The notes under the pieces were generated by a model. The model searched no databases. It had not been told where the DNA came from and saw nothing but the letters and a program-made list of their open reading frames with translations. Of a DNA stretch of 32,935 nucleotides, positions 2,835-32,935 are shown piece after piece. The position numbers were made by a program, and so were the translations under genes. Every line of letters begins with the position of its first letter. Positions within the stretch are counted from its first letter, which is position 1. Origin of the DNA: an uncultured Bacilli bacterium (GTDB lineage: Bacteria; Bacillota_I; Bacilli_A; RF39; UBA660); assembly GCA_947586655.1 (NCBI GenBank), contig CANPXR010000005.1, forward strand, positions 1-32,935. Reading direction: 5' to 3'.

Positions 2835-3158
2835 TTATTTTAAAACTTTAATATATCCTAAAATACCTTGCTTTATATCTTTTTTTACACCATCATCAAA
2901 TTTTTTATAAAAACTATAAATAAAATCCACATCTTCTTTACATGCAATAACAAAAGAATCCCTATCACATAAACCACTTACATCATACACCTCGTCATTT
3001 ATCAAACAAGCACAATGATCATTATTTTTCTGTAAAACCATTTTACAATCTGGATAAATTGATTCTAATATTTTATAATATTCTAAACAATATCCATTTA
3101 AAAACATGTTATATATATCACAATTAAAATAATCACTTAAAAACTCATTAATTTTCAT
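2835..3158 (-). CDS. Small Cys/His-containing orphan protein (107 aa)
   Basis: No confident family. I chose the internal ATG (MKINEFLSDYF) because a longer reading would run through the terminator hairpin at 3178-3209; the Shine-Dalgarno before it is weak. The protein has six cysteines, a GYC at residues 22-24, DHCAC at 47-51 and NDEVYDVSG at 54-62. The order GxC ... H ... YDxxG resembles small phage or accessory proteins with a transglutaminase/papain-like Cys-His-Asp arrangement (C24, H48, D59 would be the triad). That is a pattern resemblance only. It follows another orphan gene and a terminator, in a patch bounded by transposase and LRR remnants. Its codons are strongly A/T-biased. Function unknown. 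Confidence 0.6.
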   Translation of the reverse strand: MKINEFLSDYFNCDIYNMFLNGYCLEYYKILESIYPDCKMVLQKNNDHCACLINDEVYDVSGLCDRDSFVIACKEDVDFIYSFYKKFDDGVKKDIKQGILGYIKVLK

Positions 3159-3177
3159 GATGGTTAAAAGAACACAC

Positions 3178-3209
3178 AAAAAAATCACCATAGTATTTTA
3201 TGGTGATTT
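3178..3209 (-). terminator. Intrinsic terminator of the 278-aa orphan gene
   Basis: On the minus strand an 11-bp perfect stem (AAATCACCATA / TATGGTGATTT, 6-nt loop) is followed by a run of T. It sits just after the stop at 3230. Confidence 0.85.
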
Positions 3210-4595: not shown

Positions 4596-6560
4596 TTAAT
4601 CAATCACATATGGATCTTCTGCAAATCCCGTACCAGACGCATATTCAGTATTAGATTTAAGAGAAACCATAGGTCTTACCCCAAGAGAATTTATTGGAGT
4701 AACAGAAACTAGCTCTCCATTACTTCCAACCGACCATACATCTGGATGCTGTGGTGAAATATCACGAGGAGACAGCGTCCAATAACTAGTTCCAGTATAT
4801 AAATAATATGTTGTATTTGACTTACTAGTGCTTCCAAATCCTGCTAACCTGACCTCATCTGCGGTTATCATTCCAACCCGGTATTTTAACATTTTATTGG
4901 CAACAGTAAAACCATAACCACTAGAACACGTTAAAGCATGGTTAAAAGCATTTGGGTTAAACGACATGTAATTTCTTAAAGACCCTATAGTTCCTGAACC
5001 CTCATTAGGAGACCAACCAGCCAAGCCACGGATACCTTTATCATTACACCAAATAGTATCTTCAAGCTTGTCAGTATAGCTAGTCATGTTTTTATAATAC
5101 CACTCATCTTCAATGTAAGTTTTTATTAATGAATCATTTTCATTTGTAAACATTTTTTGTATAACATCATTAATCATTTCTCCATTAGATAAATCGACAT
5201 AATAACAACCAACGATAGTACCACTTTCATCTTGATCACCATCCGAAGTAAAATAGCAATACTTTATCTCATTACATGATGTTTGATTACTACCACAAGT
5301 GAAATGATGATTATTATCAACCGTATTTTGAATATTTTCTAAAGTGTACACACCATCATCATAAGCTATGCTATTTCCAAATAAAAAGTTATTGGAAATA
5401 CGCAAGTATTTTTGTTGATATACATCACCATACTTATATCCTAAATAAGCTGGTGGAATATACTTATTACTCGTATTTAATTGTTCATTGTATTTTTTAG
5501 TATCAATCTGAGATTTATCAGCTGTGTTTACGCATACTTTTTTTCCATCTTCTTCTTTTGGGGAGCCATTAAATATTAACTTTACTCCACCAGTTTCAGT
5601 AGTTCTTACAATTTTCCAACAATAATTAGCAAATAAAACGTTGTTATCATTAACATCACCACGATAATAATACGTTGGGTAACTCTTTTTTTCGGTACCA
5701 GAAAGCAGATAAACACCTTTGCCATTAGTATCAGACGCATTCTCATTAAACTTTATTCCACTACTATCTACAACATATTCACTTTTAATGTTATCTGGGG
5801 TACCCTTCGATGCAATAAGTTCGTAAAGGTTAGGTTTCTTTTCTACTATTAAATCACCCATTACGTTTTTTCTTATAAGAACTCCCTTATCATATGTAAA
5901 ATCTTGTTTCTTAATTAATGCCAAATTATTTTCATATAACAATACATCATAAACATCAAGTCTTACTTCTAAATCATCACCATCAATTATTTCAGTAGGT
6001 AAACTAGTAGTATTTGAAATATTTTTATATGTCACTTTGTGAAATTCCCTAAAATCAAAATCTAATGTAAAAAGATACGTAATCCTATCAGAATTATACA
6101 TTCCATCCCTATATTTTATCGTTATATAGAAATCCTTTTTTACGCCTAATTTACACTTCCCATTATTACAAATTTTATCTTTTAACTCGTACTCTTCAAC
6201 AGAATAATAAAGGTTTTCTGGAAATTTTTCATTTTTTATACTTAAAATTCCCATTTCAACGTTACCAATATTAGTTACTTCTACTTTATACTTCACCATG
6301 GAATTACTATTAGGAAGATTTACACTTCCACTTATACTAGAAACGTTATAATCCTCCCAATTAAAACTTGCGTCATTTGTTGCTTGCGATTCAGATATTG
6401 CAGTCACCCTAATATCTTTTTTAATTCTCACTTCTGATTTGATATCATTAATGTTTAACCCTATGTTAAAAGCCGAATAACCTATTGATATAATTAATAT
6501 TATAGCAACAATAATCGTTAGCATAATTCCTTTTAAATTTCTTTTATTTATTCGTTTCAT
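4596..6560 (-). CDS. Large exported surface protein with SipW-type N-terminus (654 aa)
   Basis: The start is the ATG of MKRINKRNLKG, preceded by GAGG and overlapping the upstream DUF5305 gene by 17 nt, so translation is probably coupled. Residues 10-31 form one hydrophobic segment ending GYSAFN, the shape of SipW-cognate signal segments (compare GFAAFS in the TasA-like protein at 8972-9652). Residues 40-160 look like a beta-sandwich, with YKVEVTNIGNVEMGIL as in TasA/CalY-like folds. The C-terminal half has several Cys pairs, GDVNDNNVLFANYCWKIVRT and a closing part with WTLSPRD ... GVRPMVSL, reminiscent of the DUF6273 type of extracellular domain. No LPXTG motif or C-terminal anchor is seen. 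Inferred role: exported or membrane-tethered surface component processed by the adjacent peptidase. The domain names are tentative. Confidence 0.8.
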   Translation of the reverse strand: MKRINKRNLKGIMLTIIVAIILIISIGYSAFNIGLNINDIKSEVRIKKDIRVTAISESQATNDASFNWEDYNVSSISGSVNLPNSNSMVKYKVEVTNIGNVEMGILSIKNEKFPENLYYSVEEYELKDKICNNGKCKLGVKKDFYITIKYRDGMYNSDRITYLFTLDFDFREFHKVTYKNISNTTSLPTEIIDGDDLEVRLDVYDVLLYENNLALIKKQDFTYDKGVLIRKNVMGDLIVEKKPNLYELIASKGTPDNIKSEYVVDSSGIKFNENASDTNGKGVYLLSGTEKKSYPTYYYRGDVNDNNVLFANYCWKIVRTTETGGVKLIFNGSPKEEDGKKVCVNTADKSQIDTKKYNEQLNTSNKYIPPAYLGYKYGDVYQQKYLRISNNFLFGNSIAYDDGVYTLENIQNTVDNNHHFTCGSNQTSCNEIKYCYFTSDGDQDESGTIVGCYYVDLSNGEMINDVIQKMFTNENDSLIKTYIEDEWYYKNMTSYTDKLEDTIWCNDKGIRGLAGWSPNEGSGTIGSLRNYMSFNPNAFNHALTCSSGYGFTVANKMLKYRVGMITADEVRLAGFGSTSKSNTTYYLYTGTSYWTLSPRDISPQHPDVWSVGSNGELVSVTPINSLGVRPMVSLKSNTEYASGTGFAEDPYVID

Positions 6561-7731
6561 TAGCCTCAGCTTCCATATCAACAGCCTTTACTTTCATAAG
6601 GTAAATATCATTATTTCTTTTAATATAAAAGTAGCATTTTTGATGACTTGCAACATTACAATACATAATAGGAAGTTTTAAATTATCATGAACATCTAAA
6701 AGTTCTTCAAATTTTTCAATATGAACTATATTAAATTTATTAAAATCCAAATCAACTTTAGCTTCTACTATAAGTCTATCATACTCTTTTAAAACTCTGT
6801 CAACAAACGCATCATACTTACTCTTTTTATTGTTTAACAAACTTATTAGCTTAATTAAATTAATAAGACTTACGATAGCTATTGCAAAACTACATATCAT
6901 TACTACTATGTTTCCTAAATTGAAAACTATCTTACTATCTACCATGACGCTATTCGCACTTGATGTGTTTTCGGTATCTAAAGTTATTTCAATGGCTTTT
7001 TCTGATAAAGGTATGTTAATAACACTTTGAAAACTATCATTAATGTTTAAGTCGGATTTTGCTCCGTTTTTTTCAACCTGTAAGTAAACTTTCAAATAAC
7101 TACTAGTATCCACACCATATGAAGACTTAAATACACTAGCTAATTTATTATAATAATCATAATCAATATCTATGTCTTGTGATATTTTGTACGTATTATC
7201 ATTTTTCATTGAACCTTTTTTGCTATCTAATAAAACGTACTCTTTCTCGTAATACCTATTATTACCATTAGGATTTGAAATTATCAAATCACCTATTATC
7301 TTATAATTAAAATCTATTGTTTGTTTATTGCTAATTTCAAATAAATAATCAAAATTAATATTAATTTTATCAATTAAATTAGCAACATAAATCATATTCT
7401 TTCCCAAGAATGGCTCATCATAAAAGTCATTTTTCTTAAGATAAACCCTATAATCAATTGCTTGAGTATCCTTATAATTTATTACCTTTGCATTTCGATA
7501 ACTAAACGACTTAGTAATAGAAACAATAAAAATTAACAATGATATAACAAAAATCAAAGAACATAAAAACAGCCTTAAGTTAAAACTAAAATAAAATTTA
7601 CTCTGTTTATTTTTGTTCTTATTGTCCTTTTCATTCATTTTATTTTTATCTCCTTTATTAATCTTTGTAGATGCAATCCTATCTGCTCTATTATTTTTTT
7701 TCATTGAACTAGTCTTCTTCGTGTCTTTCAT
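6544..7731 (-). CDS. DUF5305 family membrane protein (395 aa)
   Basis: The ATG follows GGAGGTAAAAA. Residues 1-48 are Lys/Asn-rich and cytosolic. A membrane span covers about 52-73, followed by an outside domain (75-265) with IDYRVYLKKNDFYDEPFLGK and MIYVANLIDKININFDY, the signature opening of DUF5305. A second span lies near 270-298, and a cytosolic tail carries KYDAFVDRVLKEYDRLIVEA and a VHIEKFEELLDVHDNLKLPI segment, also typical of the family. DUF5305 proteins have no established activity but often sit beside SipW-type signal peptidases and TasA-like proteins in Firmicutes and archaea. That is the case here: the gene begins 27 nt after the peptidase stop and overlaps the next gene. Inferred role: scaffold or assembly factor for the exported proteins. 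Confidence 0.82.
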   Translation of the reverse strand: MKDTKKTSSMKKNNRADRIASTKINKGDKNKMNEKDNKNKNKQSKFYFSFNLRLFLCSLIFVISLLIFIVSITKSFSYRNAKVINYKDTQAIDYRVYLKKNDFYDEPFLGKNMIYVANLIDKININFDYLFEISNKQTIDFNYKIIGDLIISNPNGNNRYYEKEYVLLDSKKGSMKNDNTYKISQDIDIDYDYYNKLASVFKSSYGVDTSSYLKVYLQVEKNGAKSDLNINDSFQSVINIPLSEKAIEITLDTENTSSANSVMVDSKIVFNLGNIVVMICSFAIAIVSLINLIKLISLLNNKKSKYDAFVDRVLKEYDRLIVEAKVDLDFNKFNIVHIEKFEELLDVHDNLKLPIMYCNVASHQKCYFYIKRNNDIYLMKVKAVDMEAEANETNK

Positions 7732-7758: not shown

Positions 7759-8889
7759 TTATTTTGATAGTTCATTAAACCATACCGTTGGTGCACCAAT
7801 CCAAGGTATTTTTAAACTTACAGTCCCATTAATCATATCTTTTTTTACCACGATATCGTCCTTATCTTCATTCGCGTCACCCTTAGTATAAAAATACCAC
7901 TCATCATCCACTTTAATCTTATCAATAACCCTATGAACTATAGTAATTTTATTAGATTCATACGCTATTACTTGTCCTTCTTTAATGTCTTCTACATTAT
8001 CTACTTTTTCTACTATAACTACGTCACCTTTATGAATAGATGGTACCATACTTCCACTTGCTATCGCTACCGCATAATAGTGAAAATATCCAGATACAAA
8101 GTAAATCAAAATAGTAACAATCAATGAAGAAATAATTAAAGGTACAAAACTACGCTTATTATAGTCCCTGGTTACATCCTCATCTTGCTGTTTTAAGAAA
8201 GATAAATATACCCTATAACCAAAAATAACTGGAACAATTAAGCTAATGATTGCAGTAATATAATTATTTGGATTTGGTACTATTGGTAGTAGGTAAGGAT
8301 ATAATCTCATAACCAGCAAATAGAAAATTACTGGTTTATAACCAACTTTAACACTAACATAAGTACATACAATATTAGTACTGATTGATGGCAACAAACT
8401 TAAAGAGAAAAACATAAACGTATCATAATTAGAACTAAAATTATTATAATATACTGCACCTGTTATATCAATTAAGATAAATAAAACGCAAGTCATAACA
8501 ACAAGTAGCTTACTTCCCTCTGACTTTACTAACATCATATACCTTAAAAATTCTTTTATAATTACTATCAATACTATTGGAATTATATACGTAAAACTAT
8601 TTTTTATATAAAATAAATAGTTAGTTTTGGCAAATCCAAATAATATTCCTAATAGATAATAAATTAAAAAATAAGTTAGTAAAAAGACAATTTCTTCAAT
8701 TATTATATCTTTCGCAAACCTATGTCTATCTTTTTCAAAGCCAAATAAGAACTTAAATAAAAAACATACAAGTAGTAAAAAAGCAATCATACCATAGTCA
8801 CTTAATATACTTGATACAAAACTATTTAAAATAAGAATAATCATAATAATTATTTCAAATATTAATAATCTTTTATAACCTCTTTTCAC
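7759..8889 (-). CDS. sipW: ER/SipW-type signal peptidase I with multi-span N-terminal region (376 aa)
   Basis: Type I signal peptidase of the Ser-His (ER Sec11/SipW) class. The catalytic serine is in SGSMVPS (Ser280), and histidine replaces the bacterial general-base lysine in IVHRV (His319). FYTKGDANEDKDD (Asp338 and following) is the third conserved box. What is odd is the N-terminal 265 residues: about seven or eight hydrophobic segments, where classical SipW is near 190 aa with one or two. The start is GTG, after GAGTGATAA. It lies 82 nt downstream of the TasA-like gene, with a hairpin between, and 27 nt upstream of the DUF5305 gene. Its likely substrates are the TasA-like protein and the 654-aa surface protein. 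Confidence 0.88.
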   Translation of the reverse strand: MKRGYKRLLIFEIIIMIILILNSFVSSILSDYGMIAFLLLVCFLFKFLFGFEKDRHRFAKDIIIEEIVFLLTYFLIYYLLGILFGFAKTNYLFYIKNSFTYIIPIVLIVIIKEFLRYMMLVKSEGSKLLVVMTCVLFILIDITGAVYYNNFSSNYDTFMFFSLSLLPSISTNIVCTYVSVKVGYKPVIFYLLVMRLYPYLLPIVPNPNNYITAIISLIVPVIFGYRVYLSFLKQQDEDVTRDYNKRSFVPLIISSLIVTILIYFVSGYFHYYAVAIASGSMVPSIHKGDVVIVEKVDNVEDIKEGQVIAYESNKITIVHRVIDKIKVDDEWYFYTKGDANEDKDDIVVKKDMINGTVSLKIPWIGAPTVWFNELSK

Positions 8890-8971: not shown

Positions 8972-9652
8972 TTAATCAGCTGAACTATAAGTTAACTTTA
9001 TATCACCAAACTTAACATCAAAGTCACCATCAGCAAGATTATCATTACTCTCATCAGCTTTGTATTCAATCTTAACGACTACTTTTTCAAATGCCTTTTT
9101 ATCCAAAGCATGGCTTTTTATATCTGATTTAGTAGTAGTTAAATTTTGTAAATCATTATTCTCACCAACACTTATAGATAGTTCAATGCTATCACAAGCT
9201 TTTTTAACCAAAGCCTCAGTCGTACCTTCTTTAGCACTACATTCTTTATTTGAACTTCCATCAGTTACATTGTCAAAAGTAATTGTTTTTAAATATGCTT
9301 TATAATCCCCTTGATTTGTTACGTAAAACGTATAAGTAACAGAATCCCCTGGATCCTTAAAAGTAGCTTTTAAACCTGTTATTGAAGGTGAAGATGCACT
9401 ATCATTATTTATGGATGCACTTTGTGCAGTAGCCTGATTTACACCACTTACTTTTCCTTCTACCTCACTTGTTTGTAACGTATCTTCTGAACTAGAAAAT
9501 AATACTTTAAACCTAGATGCATCTGGGTTTACTTCTGCTGATTGGCTAATTGTTAAAGTACTAGAAAATGCAGCAAAGCCAATTGATAATCCTATTACTC
9601 CAATAACCAAAGCAATAATTGCAATAATTTTTGAACTTCTATCTTTTTCCAT
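8972..9652 (-). CDS. TasA/CalY-like exported protein with SipW-cognate signal peptide (226 aa)
   Basis: Residues 8-29 (KIIAIIALVIGVIGLSIGFA, then AF) are a SipW-cognate type signal peptide, followed by SSTLTISQSAEVNPDASRF. The mature part is beta-rich, acidic and Ser/Asn/Asp-rich, with the TasA/camelysin-like core SVTYTFYVTNQGDYKAYLKT and a closing GDIKLTYSS strand. There are two Cys (in NKECSAK and KKACDS) that may form a disulfide. In Bacillus, TasA is the matrix fibre protein and CalY a related surface protein; neither exact function can be claimed here. It is the first gene of the operon, with a strong AGGAGG site and its own promoter, and is followed by the peptidase expected to process it. 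Size (about 200 aa mature) suits the family. Confidence 0.82.
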   Translation of the reverse strand: MEKDRSSKIIAIIALVIGVIGLSIGFAAFSSTLTISQSAEVNPDASRFKVLFSSSEDTLQTSEVEGKVSGVNQATAQSASINNDSASSPSITGLKATFKDPGDSVTYTFYVTNQGDYKAYLKTITFDNVTDGSSNKECSAKEGTTEALVKKACDSIELSISVGENNDLQNLTTTKSDIKSHALDKKAFEKVVVKIEYKADESNDNLADGDFDVKFGDIKLTYSSAD

Positions 9653-31335: not shown

Positions 31336-31740
31336 TTATTTACAATTACCATCTAATCCATACCAATACCCATCAAATTCATAACCATTATAATTGACTT
31401 CATATTTATTTTGATTTTCTGATGAGTAATTCCCCTTACAAACAACTTGACTAAGTCCTTGTCCTTGCGTTAACAAATCATTTTTTCCAGTTTCTGGATT
31501 AGTTGCATCTTTTTCTAAGTATTCGCTTAAATCAGAAATTGTAGCTGATGTTTTATCACCATTAACAGCAAAATAAGCTTCTGCTATTTGAACAATTTCT
31601 TTTGCTGCGATATATTTAGCTTTAGCTCTAGAATCATTTATGTTCTTTATTACGCTTGAGGTTGCAATAACAAGTATTATAGAAAGCACTACTATTACCG
31701 CTAATAACTCGATTAAAGTAAATCCATTTTTTCTTTCCAT
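31336..31740 (-). CDS. Prepilin-like protein (type IV pilin/ComGC-like)
   Basis: The start is the ATG of MERKNGFTLIELLAVIVVLS, which follows AGGTGATAAT; the longer reading is not supported. Class III signal peptide with cleavage expected after Gly6 (KNG|FTLIE) and the conserved Glu5 of the mature protein. One N-terminal helix (7-30) then a small soluble domain with two Cys (in VVCKGN and DGNCK near the end) that may form a disulfide loop. 134 aa. Likely a pseudopilin or pilin exported by a type IV pilus/Com system, whose assembly genes are not here. It sits alone, with its own promoter and terminator. It is not one of the operonic comG pilins by context. Confidence 0.85.
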   Translation of the reverse strand: MERKNGFTLIELLAVIVVLSIILVIATSSVIKNINDSRAKAKYIAAKEIVQIAEAYFAVNGDKTSATISDLSEYLEKDATNPETGKNDLLTQGQGLSQVVCKGNYSSENQNKYEVNYNGYEFDGYWYGLDGNCK

Positions 31741-31750
31741 ATTATCACCT

Positions 31751-31775
31751 ATCATCATAATATCATTATGATGAT
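31751..31775. repeat. Inverted repeat over the pilin promoter
   Basis: Perfect 11-bp arms ATCATCATAAT / ATTATGATGAT with a 3-nt centre, covering the -10 and most of the spacer of the pilin promoter. A likely operator for a dimeric regulator. Confidence 0.6.
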
Positions 31776-31785
31776 TCTTAGTCAA
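31757..31785 (-). promoter_or_regulatory. Promoter of the prepilin-like gene
   Basis: Minus strand TTGACT, 17-nt spacer, TATTAT, 16 nt before the ATG. Confidence 0.65.
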
Positions 31786-31951: not shown

Positions 31952-32935
31952 TTATTTACTTTTGCTTTTTCTATATTGTTCAACGTTTTCTGGATTTATT
32001 TCAAATCCATTCATATGTATCGTATATGTTAATGGCTCTGGAATAATTAAACCCTCGGCACTTGTTAAGCTCTTTAAAAATAAATCCCCGCCTATACTTT
32101 GTGGTAACACTAATCCTTCCGCACTTGTTAAGCTGTTTAAACCTAAATCACCATCTATTCTCTGGGGCAACTCTAATCTTTCTGCATTAGTTAAGCTGTT
32201 TAAATCTAAATCTCCACCTATTCTTTGTGGGAATTTTAATCCTTCAGCATTGGCTAAATCACTCAAAATTATATCACCACCTATGTTTTGTGGTAACTCT
32301 AATTCTTCGGCATTAGTTAAGCTGTTTAAATCTAAATATCCATCTATTCTTTGTGGTAACACTAACCCTTTGGCGCTAGTTAAGCTGCCTAAATCTAAAT
32401 TTCCACCTACCCTTTGCGGTAATATTAATCCTTCCGCACTTGTTAAGCTGCTTAAATTTAAATCATTGTCTATGATTTGTGGCAACATTAATCCTTTGGC
32501 ACTAATTAAGCTATTTAAATCTAAATCTCCACCTATTCTTTGTGGTAACTCTAATCCTTTGGCATTAGTTAATCTGTTTAAATATAAAGAGCCTCCTATG
32601 CTTTGTGGGAATACCAATCCTTCCGCACTTGTTAGGCTGCTTAAATATAAAGAGCCTCCTATGCTTTGTGGGAATACCAATCCTTCCTCACTTGTTAAGC
32701 TACTTAAATATAAAGAGCCTCCTATGCTTTGTGGAAATTCTAATCCTTTGGCACTTGTTAAGCTGCCTAAATTTAAACCCCCTATACTTTGTGGTAACAC
32801 TAATCCTTTTGCATTAGTTAAGTTGTTTAAATCTAAATATCCACCTATATTTTGTGGCAATACCAATCCTTCGGCACTTGTTAGGCTGCTTAAATCTAAA
32901 AAGCCTCCTATGCTTTGTGGTAATACTAATCCTTC
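31952..32935 (-). CDS. Leucine-rich-repeat array protein, 3' part, running off the right edge
   Basis: Partial: the frame stays open to the window end, so any start inside the window is false. The visible 327 codons are 14 tandem 21-residue units of the form EGLVLPQSIGGDLDLNSLTSA (one unit lacks a residue), then a non-repeat cap of about 35 residues (EGLIIPEPLTYTIHMNGFEI, NPENVEQYRKSKSK). The period is 63 nt in DNA. Leu/Ile spacing implies an LRR-like solenoid with the GG turn in each unit. There is no membrane span, LPXTG or export anchor at this end, so location is unknown; the N-terminus outside the window would tell. Function unknown; repeat proteins of this kind commonly bind protein ligands. 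The cap is nearly the same as the remnant at 4173-4361. Confidence 0.85.
   Translation of the reverse strand, partial: EGLVLPQSIGGFLDLSSLTSAEGLVLPQNIGGYLDLNNLTNAKGLVLPQSIGGLNLGSLTSAKGLEFPQSIGGSLYLSSLTSEEGLVFPQSIGGSLYLSSLTSAEGLVFPQSIGGSLYLNRLTNAKGLELPQRIGGDLDLNSLISAKGLMLPQIIDNDLNLSSLTSAEGLILPQRVGGNLDLGSLTSAKGLVLPQRIDGYLDLNSLTNAEELELPQNIGGDIILSDLANAEGLKFPQRIGGDLDLNSLTNAERLELPQRIDGDLGLNSLTSAEGLVLPQSIGGDLFLKSLTSAEGLIIPEPLTYTIHMNGFEINPENVEQYRKSKSK

What the first reader, a model, noticed from the sequence alone, without database searches (positions are those of the whole stretch)
7759..8889. Signal peptidase with about seven or eight extra membrane segments before the catalytic domain
The catalytic part (Ser280, His319, GDAN box) follows about 265 residues of membrane segments, whereas classical SipW is about 190 aa in total. 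The added region may select substrates, dock DUF5305 or place the peptidase in a fixed assembly site.
Basis: seen in the sequence. Interest (0 to 1): 0.5.

Follow-up and report, generated by a model that had tools for sequence, protein, structure and literature searches.

The report
Signal peptidase fused to membrane domain
In a family of uncultured bacteria, the enzyme that trims secreted fibre-like proteins carries an extra, strongly conserved eight-pass membrane domain that looks like a defunct CAAX-type protease and nearly always sits beside one uncharacterised partner gene (DUF5305), suggesting a dedicated bacterial signal-peptidase complex that nobody seems to have described.

Summary
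Observation confirmed. Window 8889-7759 (minus strand) encodes a 376-aa protein. Residues ~249-374 are an ER/archaeal-type (S26B, SEC11-like) signal peptidase. Residues 1-236 hold eight further membrane segments with no Pfam or NCBIfam match. This is no chance fusion: 82 distinct full-length relatives (359-419 aa) occur in 65 of 145 sampled genomes of the same family, plus one genome in each of two other families. In the added region G81, E113, R116, P202 and P205 are 96-100% conserved, as strongly as the catalytic residues. No stand-alone copy was found.

Profile-profile comparison relates the added domain to the CAAX-protease/Rce1 (CPBP) superfamily (local P 9e-5, global 2e-6; above all 60 segment-shuffled decoys and a reversed control). 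Catalytic positions are replaced, so it is probably a non-proteolytic CPBP-like domain, comparable to APH-1 or LnsB. DUF5305 lies immediately downstream in 74 of 82 cases. In one genome, two truncated copies lacking the added domain also lack an adjacent DUF5305.

Best explanation: a two-gene, SEC11-type signal-peptidase complex devoted to TasA-like secreted proteins, in which the added domain forms the membrane part and docks DUF5305. Function is inferred; the CPBP assignment needs a structure. New variant of a known kind.

The parts
7759..8889 (-). Long signal peptidase gene, 376 aa, GTG start
   Evidence: C-terminus TIGR02228 E 1.1e-22 over cut-off; 82 full-length relatives
8182..8889 (-). 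Added N-terminal domain, residues 1-236, eight membrane segments, CPBP/Rce1-like
   Evidence: hydropathy and loop charges in 82 members; profile comparison and decoys; no Pfam/NCBIfam match
8542..8553 (-). ExxR motif (E113, R116) at the cytosolic end of membrane segment 4; aligned with the EExxxR motif of CPBP proteins
   Evidence: 98% conserved each in 82 members; aligned
8083..8145 (-). Signal-peptidase anchor, membrane segment 9 (residues 249-269)
7768..8082 (-). Extracytoplasmic S26B catalytic domain (S280, H319, D344; GDAN 337-340)
   Evidence: SEC11A E 8.9e-21 with the family profile versus 4e-4 for the best bacterial-type signal peptidase; Pfam S26/S24
6544..7731 (-). DUF5305 membrane protein, 395 aa, directly downstream; proposed partner subunit
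   Evidence: PF17231 E 3e-14; immediately downstream of 74 of 82 long forms
8972..9652 (-). TasA-like secreted protein, 226 aa, directly upstream; proposed substrate
   Evidence: N-terminal hydrophobic segment ending GFAAFS; TasA-like ORF within 1.5 kb upstream in 64 of 82 loci
4596..6581 (-). 661-aa secreted protein, TasA-like N-terminus, weak DUF6273 match at the C-terminus; proposed second substrate
   Evidence: DUF6273 E 0.002, below cut-off

Best explanation
The gene encodes a dedicated, SEC11-type signal peptidase for the neighbouring TasA-like secreted (probably fibre) proteins. Its catalytic domain was fused long ago to an eight-pass, CPBP/Rce1-like domain that has lost the catalytic histidines. 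Shown here: the fusion, its conservation, its topology, and the near-obligate DUF5305 neighbour. Inferred: the added domain is not a protease; it forms the membrane part of a complex, docks DUF5305 (whose outer domain is modelled as a beta-sandwich at low confidence), and receives or holds the signal-peptide helix of the fibre protein so that cleavage and hand-over to the growing fibre occur at one place. It would do in one chain what SPC12 and SPC25 do around SEC11 in eukaryotes, or what APH-1 does beside presenilin.
For: S26B catalytic domain. Conservation of the added domain as strong as that of the active site. Topology of eight passes plus anchor, catalytic domain outside. CPBP relationship: N-terminal profile versus CPBP profile P 8.9e-5 local, 2.4e-6 global; reversed control P 0.28/0.25; TauE and A24 prepilin-peptidase profiles no match; 60 membrane-segment-shuffled decoys scored at most 27.5 local and 22.6 global against 37.4 and 33.8. 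The accepted pair CPBP-PrsW scores similarly in the same set-up (73%, P 3e-5). Loss of catalytic residues: the first Glu is mostly not kept, the FxxxH histidine position is D/E in 66 of 82, and the HxxxN histidine position is mostly R/K. DUF5305 coupling. TasA-like neighbours. Precedents: APH-1 and its EExxR/QExxR motif (PMC6588880), LnsB (PMC7387801), SPC membrane window (PMC13385932), SipW dependence of BsaA secretion (PMC7395162).
Against: No direct biochemical data. The AlphaFold model of the protein had only two aligned sequences and failed for the membrane region (pLDDT about 40), so the fold is not confirmed. Sequence-profile search of the PDB with the added domain found nothing at E up to 10, and none of 32 members scanned matches PF02517. 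CPBP evidence weakens when the CPBP set is split (P 0.003-0.014), and one control pair (A24-PrsW) reached P 1e-4 through a short local match at the end of the PrsW profile. DUF5305 also occurs away from any long signal peptidase. Neighbour and co-divergence evidence cannot separate binding from shared operon history.
Confidence: 0.55

Rival explanations
1. The added domain is a membrane anchor or spacer of unrelated fold that only localises or stabilises the peptidase and takes no part in substrate handling; DUF5305 is co-transcribed for other reasons.
For: Structure prediction failed, there is no PDB or Pfam sequence match, and two natural copies without the domain persist in one genome.
Against: Invariant polar residues inside or at the edge of the membrane (E113, R116, acidic 141, N172) are not expected of a passive anchor. 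No stand-alone or swapped anchors were seen, and DUF5305 linkage is very high.
Confidence: 0.25
2. The added domain is itself an active intramembrane enzyme of CPBP type (a second protease or a transferase), giving a bifunctional enzyme that cleaves or modifies the leftover signal peptide or the fibre protein.
For: CPBP-like profile match and conserved polar residues E113, R116, D/E141 and N172 in the membrane part; CPBP-fold proteins can have non-protease roles such as LnsB (PMC7387801).
Against: The CPBP catalytic histidines and the first Glu of EExxxR are not conserved.
Confidence: 0.12
3. The protein is a general signal peptidase of this lineage, not dedicated to TasA-like proteins.
For: It belongs to TIGR02228.
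Against: The genome encodes another signal-peptidase-like gene on C29, many family genomes lack the long form altogether, and long forms lie beside TasA-like genes.
Confidence: 0.08

Closest known systems
SipW (Bacillus TasA operon; C. perfringens SipW-BsaA)
   Same: ER/archaeal-type S26B signal peptidase next to TasA-like fibre proteins
   Different: SipW is about 190 aa and lacks the eight-pass domain; the window protein scores 62 bits against a SipW cut-off of 190; DUF5305 is not named among the genes of the described sipW operons (PMC7395162, PMC13082335)
Eukaryotic signal peptidase complex (SEC11 with SPC12, SPC25, SPC22/23)
   Same: Catalytic domain closest to SEC11A/C among solved structures; a multi-pass membrane part around one catalytic anchor is proposed
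   Different: Membrane part is fused in one chain; no homology to SPC12/25 was tested or claimed; partner is DUF5305
CPBP / Rce1 (type II CAAX protease) superfamily, including APH-1 and LnsB
   Same: Eight membrane segments in the same order, ExxR motif aligned with EExxxR
   Different: Catalytic histidines not conserved; fused to a signal peptidase; similarity visible only by profile comparison
DUF5305 (PF17231)
   Same: Downstream neighbour is a member
   Different: Function unknown; no paper mentioning it was found in the library

Membership tests
S26B signal peptidase (TIGR02228) | Score over the curated cut-off | tested here: met
   80.5 bits versus cut-off 51.85
S26B signal peptidase (TIGR02228) | Ser-His-Asp catalytic residues (His in place of the bacterial Lys) | tested here: met
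   S280, H319, D344 96% conserved each, aligned to SEC11A
S26B signal peptidase (TIGR02228) | Cleaves signal peptides | not testable with these tools
   needs an assay
SipW (NF046067 equivalog) | Score over the curated cut-off of 190 bits | tested here: not met
   62 bits
SipW (NF046067 equivalog) | About 190 aa, short anchor(s) only | tested here: not met
   376 aa with eight added segments
CPBP / Rce1 superfamily | Detectable homology by profile-profile comparison over the membrane core | tested here: met
   P 8.9e-5 local, 2.4e-6 global, better than 60 of 60 shuffled decoys; probability only 60-77%, so tentative
CPBP / Rce1 superfamily | EExxxR (or EExxR/QExxR) motif | tested here: inconclusive
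   ExxR 98% conserved and aligned with it, but the preceding residue is E or Q in only 19 of 82
CPBP / Rce1 superfamily | Two catalytic histidines in later membrane segments | tested here: not met
   positions hold mostly D/E and R/K; hence CPBP-like, not an active CPBP protease
CPBP / Rce1 superfamily | PF02517 match over cut-off | tested here: not met
   none of 32 members matches
CPBP / Rce1 superfamily | Rce1-like fold | tested here: inconclusive
   structure prediction failed for lack of alignment depth

The most novel reading that the evidence does not exclude
A minimal bacterial counterpart of the ER signal peptidase complex: a SEC11-type catalytic domain fused to a CPBP-derived, APH-1-like pseudoprotease that forms the membrane window and presents substrate, plus a DUF5305 subunit with an outer beta-sandwich, which together cut TasA-like subunits and pass them directly into a fibre.
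Probability: 0.3. Interest if true: 0.75.

Novelty: new variant of a known kind. Interest (0 to 1): 0.55.

Why it matters
Bacterial signal peptidases are usually thought of as small, single-protein enzymes. A conserved fusion to a multi-pass domain with its own invariant intramembrane residues, tied to one partner gene, would make a bacterial signal-peptidase complex directly testable. It would add a second case, after APH-1, of a CPBP-type domain working inside another protease, and would suggest a function for DUF5305, which has none.

Tried and rejected
PrsW (PF13367) and YhfC (PF10086) as closest relatives of the added domain, suggested by their EExxK/EExxRY motifs: no co-linear match (P 0.01 or worse). 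TauE/SafE, which one member hit weakly in Pfam (E 0.001), and A24 prepilin peptidase: rejected. Viral and plasmid homologues: none for the added domain; phage hits covered only the catalytic part. AlphaFold of the whole protein with two sequences failed in the membrane region. The structure tool admits only window sequences and loci from certain searches, so the deep alignment was not submitted. AlphaFold of DUF5305 gave a low-confidence beta-sandwich with generic Ig-like matches (best E 8e-4); not used as evidence for SPC22/23 homology. A strict two-way dependence between DUF5305 and the long form was rejected because DUF5305 genes without a long form exist.

Full report
What is there. The gene runs on the minus strand from 8889 to 7759 and encodes 376 residues. 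The C-terminal part matches the ER/archaeal-type signal peptidase model TIGR02228 (80.5 bits, cut-off 51.85) and Pfam S26/S24; it scores far below the SipW cut-off. A profile of 32 relatives hits human SEC11A at 8.9e-21 but bacterial-type signal peptidases only at 4e-4 or worse. Residues 1-236 match no family.

Topology. Averaged over 82 relatives, residues 1-236 hold eight hydrophobic stretches, each present in 78-82 members, followed by the usual anchor at 249-269. K+R counts of successive loops are 2.8, 0.5, 3.9, 1.1, 2.5, 0.5, 1.1, 0.1 and 5.6: the positive-inside pattern of an N-in, nine-pass protein with its catalytic domain outside.

It is a family, not an accident. A search of 145 genomes of the same family (nearly one per genus) gave full-length matches in 65 of them (counted by reading that table), including a second copy in the same genome on contig C66 (L002) inside a parallel cluster of TasA-like genes, long peptidase and DUF5305. 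Eighty-two distinct full-length proteins of 359-419 aa were collected. A named record with 58% identity is an uncultured Bacilli bacterium (L006). A profile of the added domain alone, run over 395 genomes of the class, found strong matches only in this family and in one genome each of two other families (L180, 410 aa; L181, 441 aa). Both of those are also fused and followed by a DUF5305-like gene, judged by eye from its position, length and sequence. No stand-alone copy was seen. Sampling outside this class was not possible.

Conservation. In 82 members G81 is invariant, E113, R116 and P202 are 98% and P205 is 96% conserved, comparable with S280, H319 and D344 at 96%. N172 is 83% conserved, and position 141 is acidic in 66 of 82. 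These are polar residues within or at the edge of the membrane, with E113 and R116 at the cytosolic end of segment 4.

What the added domain is. HHalign of the N-terminal profile against CPBP/Rce1-like proteins from the same class gave 19% (P 0.0012) with 32 sequences, 56% (P 1e-4) with 82, and 60% local / 77% global (P 9e-5 / 2.4e-6) with deeper profiles. The alignment covers all eight segments in order and places E113xxR116 on the EExxxR motif. Controls: the reversed profile P 0.28; MurJ, RodA and ComEC sequences P 0.07 or worse; TauE and A24 profiles P 0.017 or worse in the main comparison; PrsW and YhfC P 0.01 or worse. In 60 decoys with the membrane segments shuffled, the best scores were 27.5 local and 22.6 global against 37.4 and 33.8 for the real order. 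The accepted pair CPBP-PrsW scores 73% in the same set-up. Two cautions: halving the CPBP set drops the match to P 0.003-0.014, and one control pair (A24-PrsW) also reached P 1e-4, through a short stretch at the end of the PrsW profile. The position of the CPBP FxxxH histidine is D/E, and that of the HxxxN histidine is mostly R/K, so an active CAAX-type protease is unlikely. PMC6588880 describes EExxR/QExxR motifs in the PrsW and APH-1 relatives of CPBP; PMC7387801 discusses LnsB and APH-1 as CPBP-fold proteins without the catalytic residues.

Partner gene. DUF5305 is the next gene, usually within about 35 bp, in 74 of 82 loci, nearby in 3 and not detected in 5. By genome (counts read), 64 of 65 long-form genomes have a PF17231 hit, and the 65th (G135) has one by our own profile. 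Of 80 genomes without the long form, 9 have a PF17231 hit, 4 of them below the cut-off. DUF5305 genes away from a long form do exist, so the dependence is one-way. In genome G050 two 143-146-aa peptidases nest among the long forms in the tree (SH-aLRT 82, weak) but lack the added domain, and neither has DUF5305 beside it. Divergence of the added domain tracks DUF5305 better than the catalytic domain does (partial r 0.52 vs 0.21; 0.45 vs 0.28 with equal column numbers). This fits contact but can also come from shared operon history.

Substrates. A crude motif scan finds TasA-like ORFs within 1.5 kb upstream of 64 of 82 long forms, against 12 of 118 background ORFs. In Bacillus and C. perfringens, SipW-type peptidases are needed for secretion and polymerisation of TasA/BsaA (PMC7395162, PMC13082335). 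That the window's 226-aa and 661-aa proteins are the substrates is inference.

Mechanism. In the human complex, membrane helices around SEC11 form a thinned window that holds short signal-peptide h-regions (PMC13385932). I propose that the eight-pass domain plays such a role here, fused to the enzyme, and that DUF5305 is its outer subunit. Steps beyond fusion, topology, conservation and gene order are inferred.

Known or new. The catalytic domain is ordinary S26B. The added domain and its pairing with DUF5305 were not found described; the library holds no paper naming DUF5305, and searches on SipW with extra segments found none. The library lacks most subscription papers, so this is not proof of novelty. 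I file it as a new variant of SipW/SEC11-type signal peptidases.

Noticed in passing
window 31952-32935, minus strand: Fourteen 63-bp tandem repeats (21-aa units such as GLVFPQSIGGSLYLSSLTSAE) form most of a 304-aa ORF; a repetitive, probably beta-rich protein with no credible Pfam match.
   Followed up: partly
window 31336-31785, minus strand: 149-aa protein with a type IV pilin N-methylation motif (PF07963); an A24 prepilin peptidase is encoded elsewhere in the same genome (C48).
   Followed up: no
L002 (contig C66 of the same genome): A second cluster with three TasA-like genes, a long signal peptidase (34% identical) and DUF5305.
   Followed up: yes
L293, L294, L313, L314 (genome G050): Signal peptidases of the long-form clade that have lost the eight-pass domain and the adjacent DUF5305: a natural domain deletion.
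   Followed up: yes
L310 289-1533, plus strand (genome G123): A different 415-aa S26B peptidase with a long charged, non-membrane N-terminal extension rather than the eight-pass domain.
   Followed up: no
window 2835-3191, minus strand: 118-aa protein matching the phage YunG-like family PF24591 (E 6e-11).
   Followed up: no
DUF5305, window residues 310-390 (about 6802-6562): The C-terminal cytosolic part of DUF5305 is modelled with the best confidence (pLDDT about 65-85) and contains a strongly conserved FEELLDVHDNLKLPIMY stretch; its function is unknown.
   Followed up: partly
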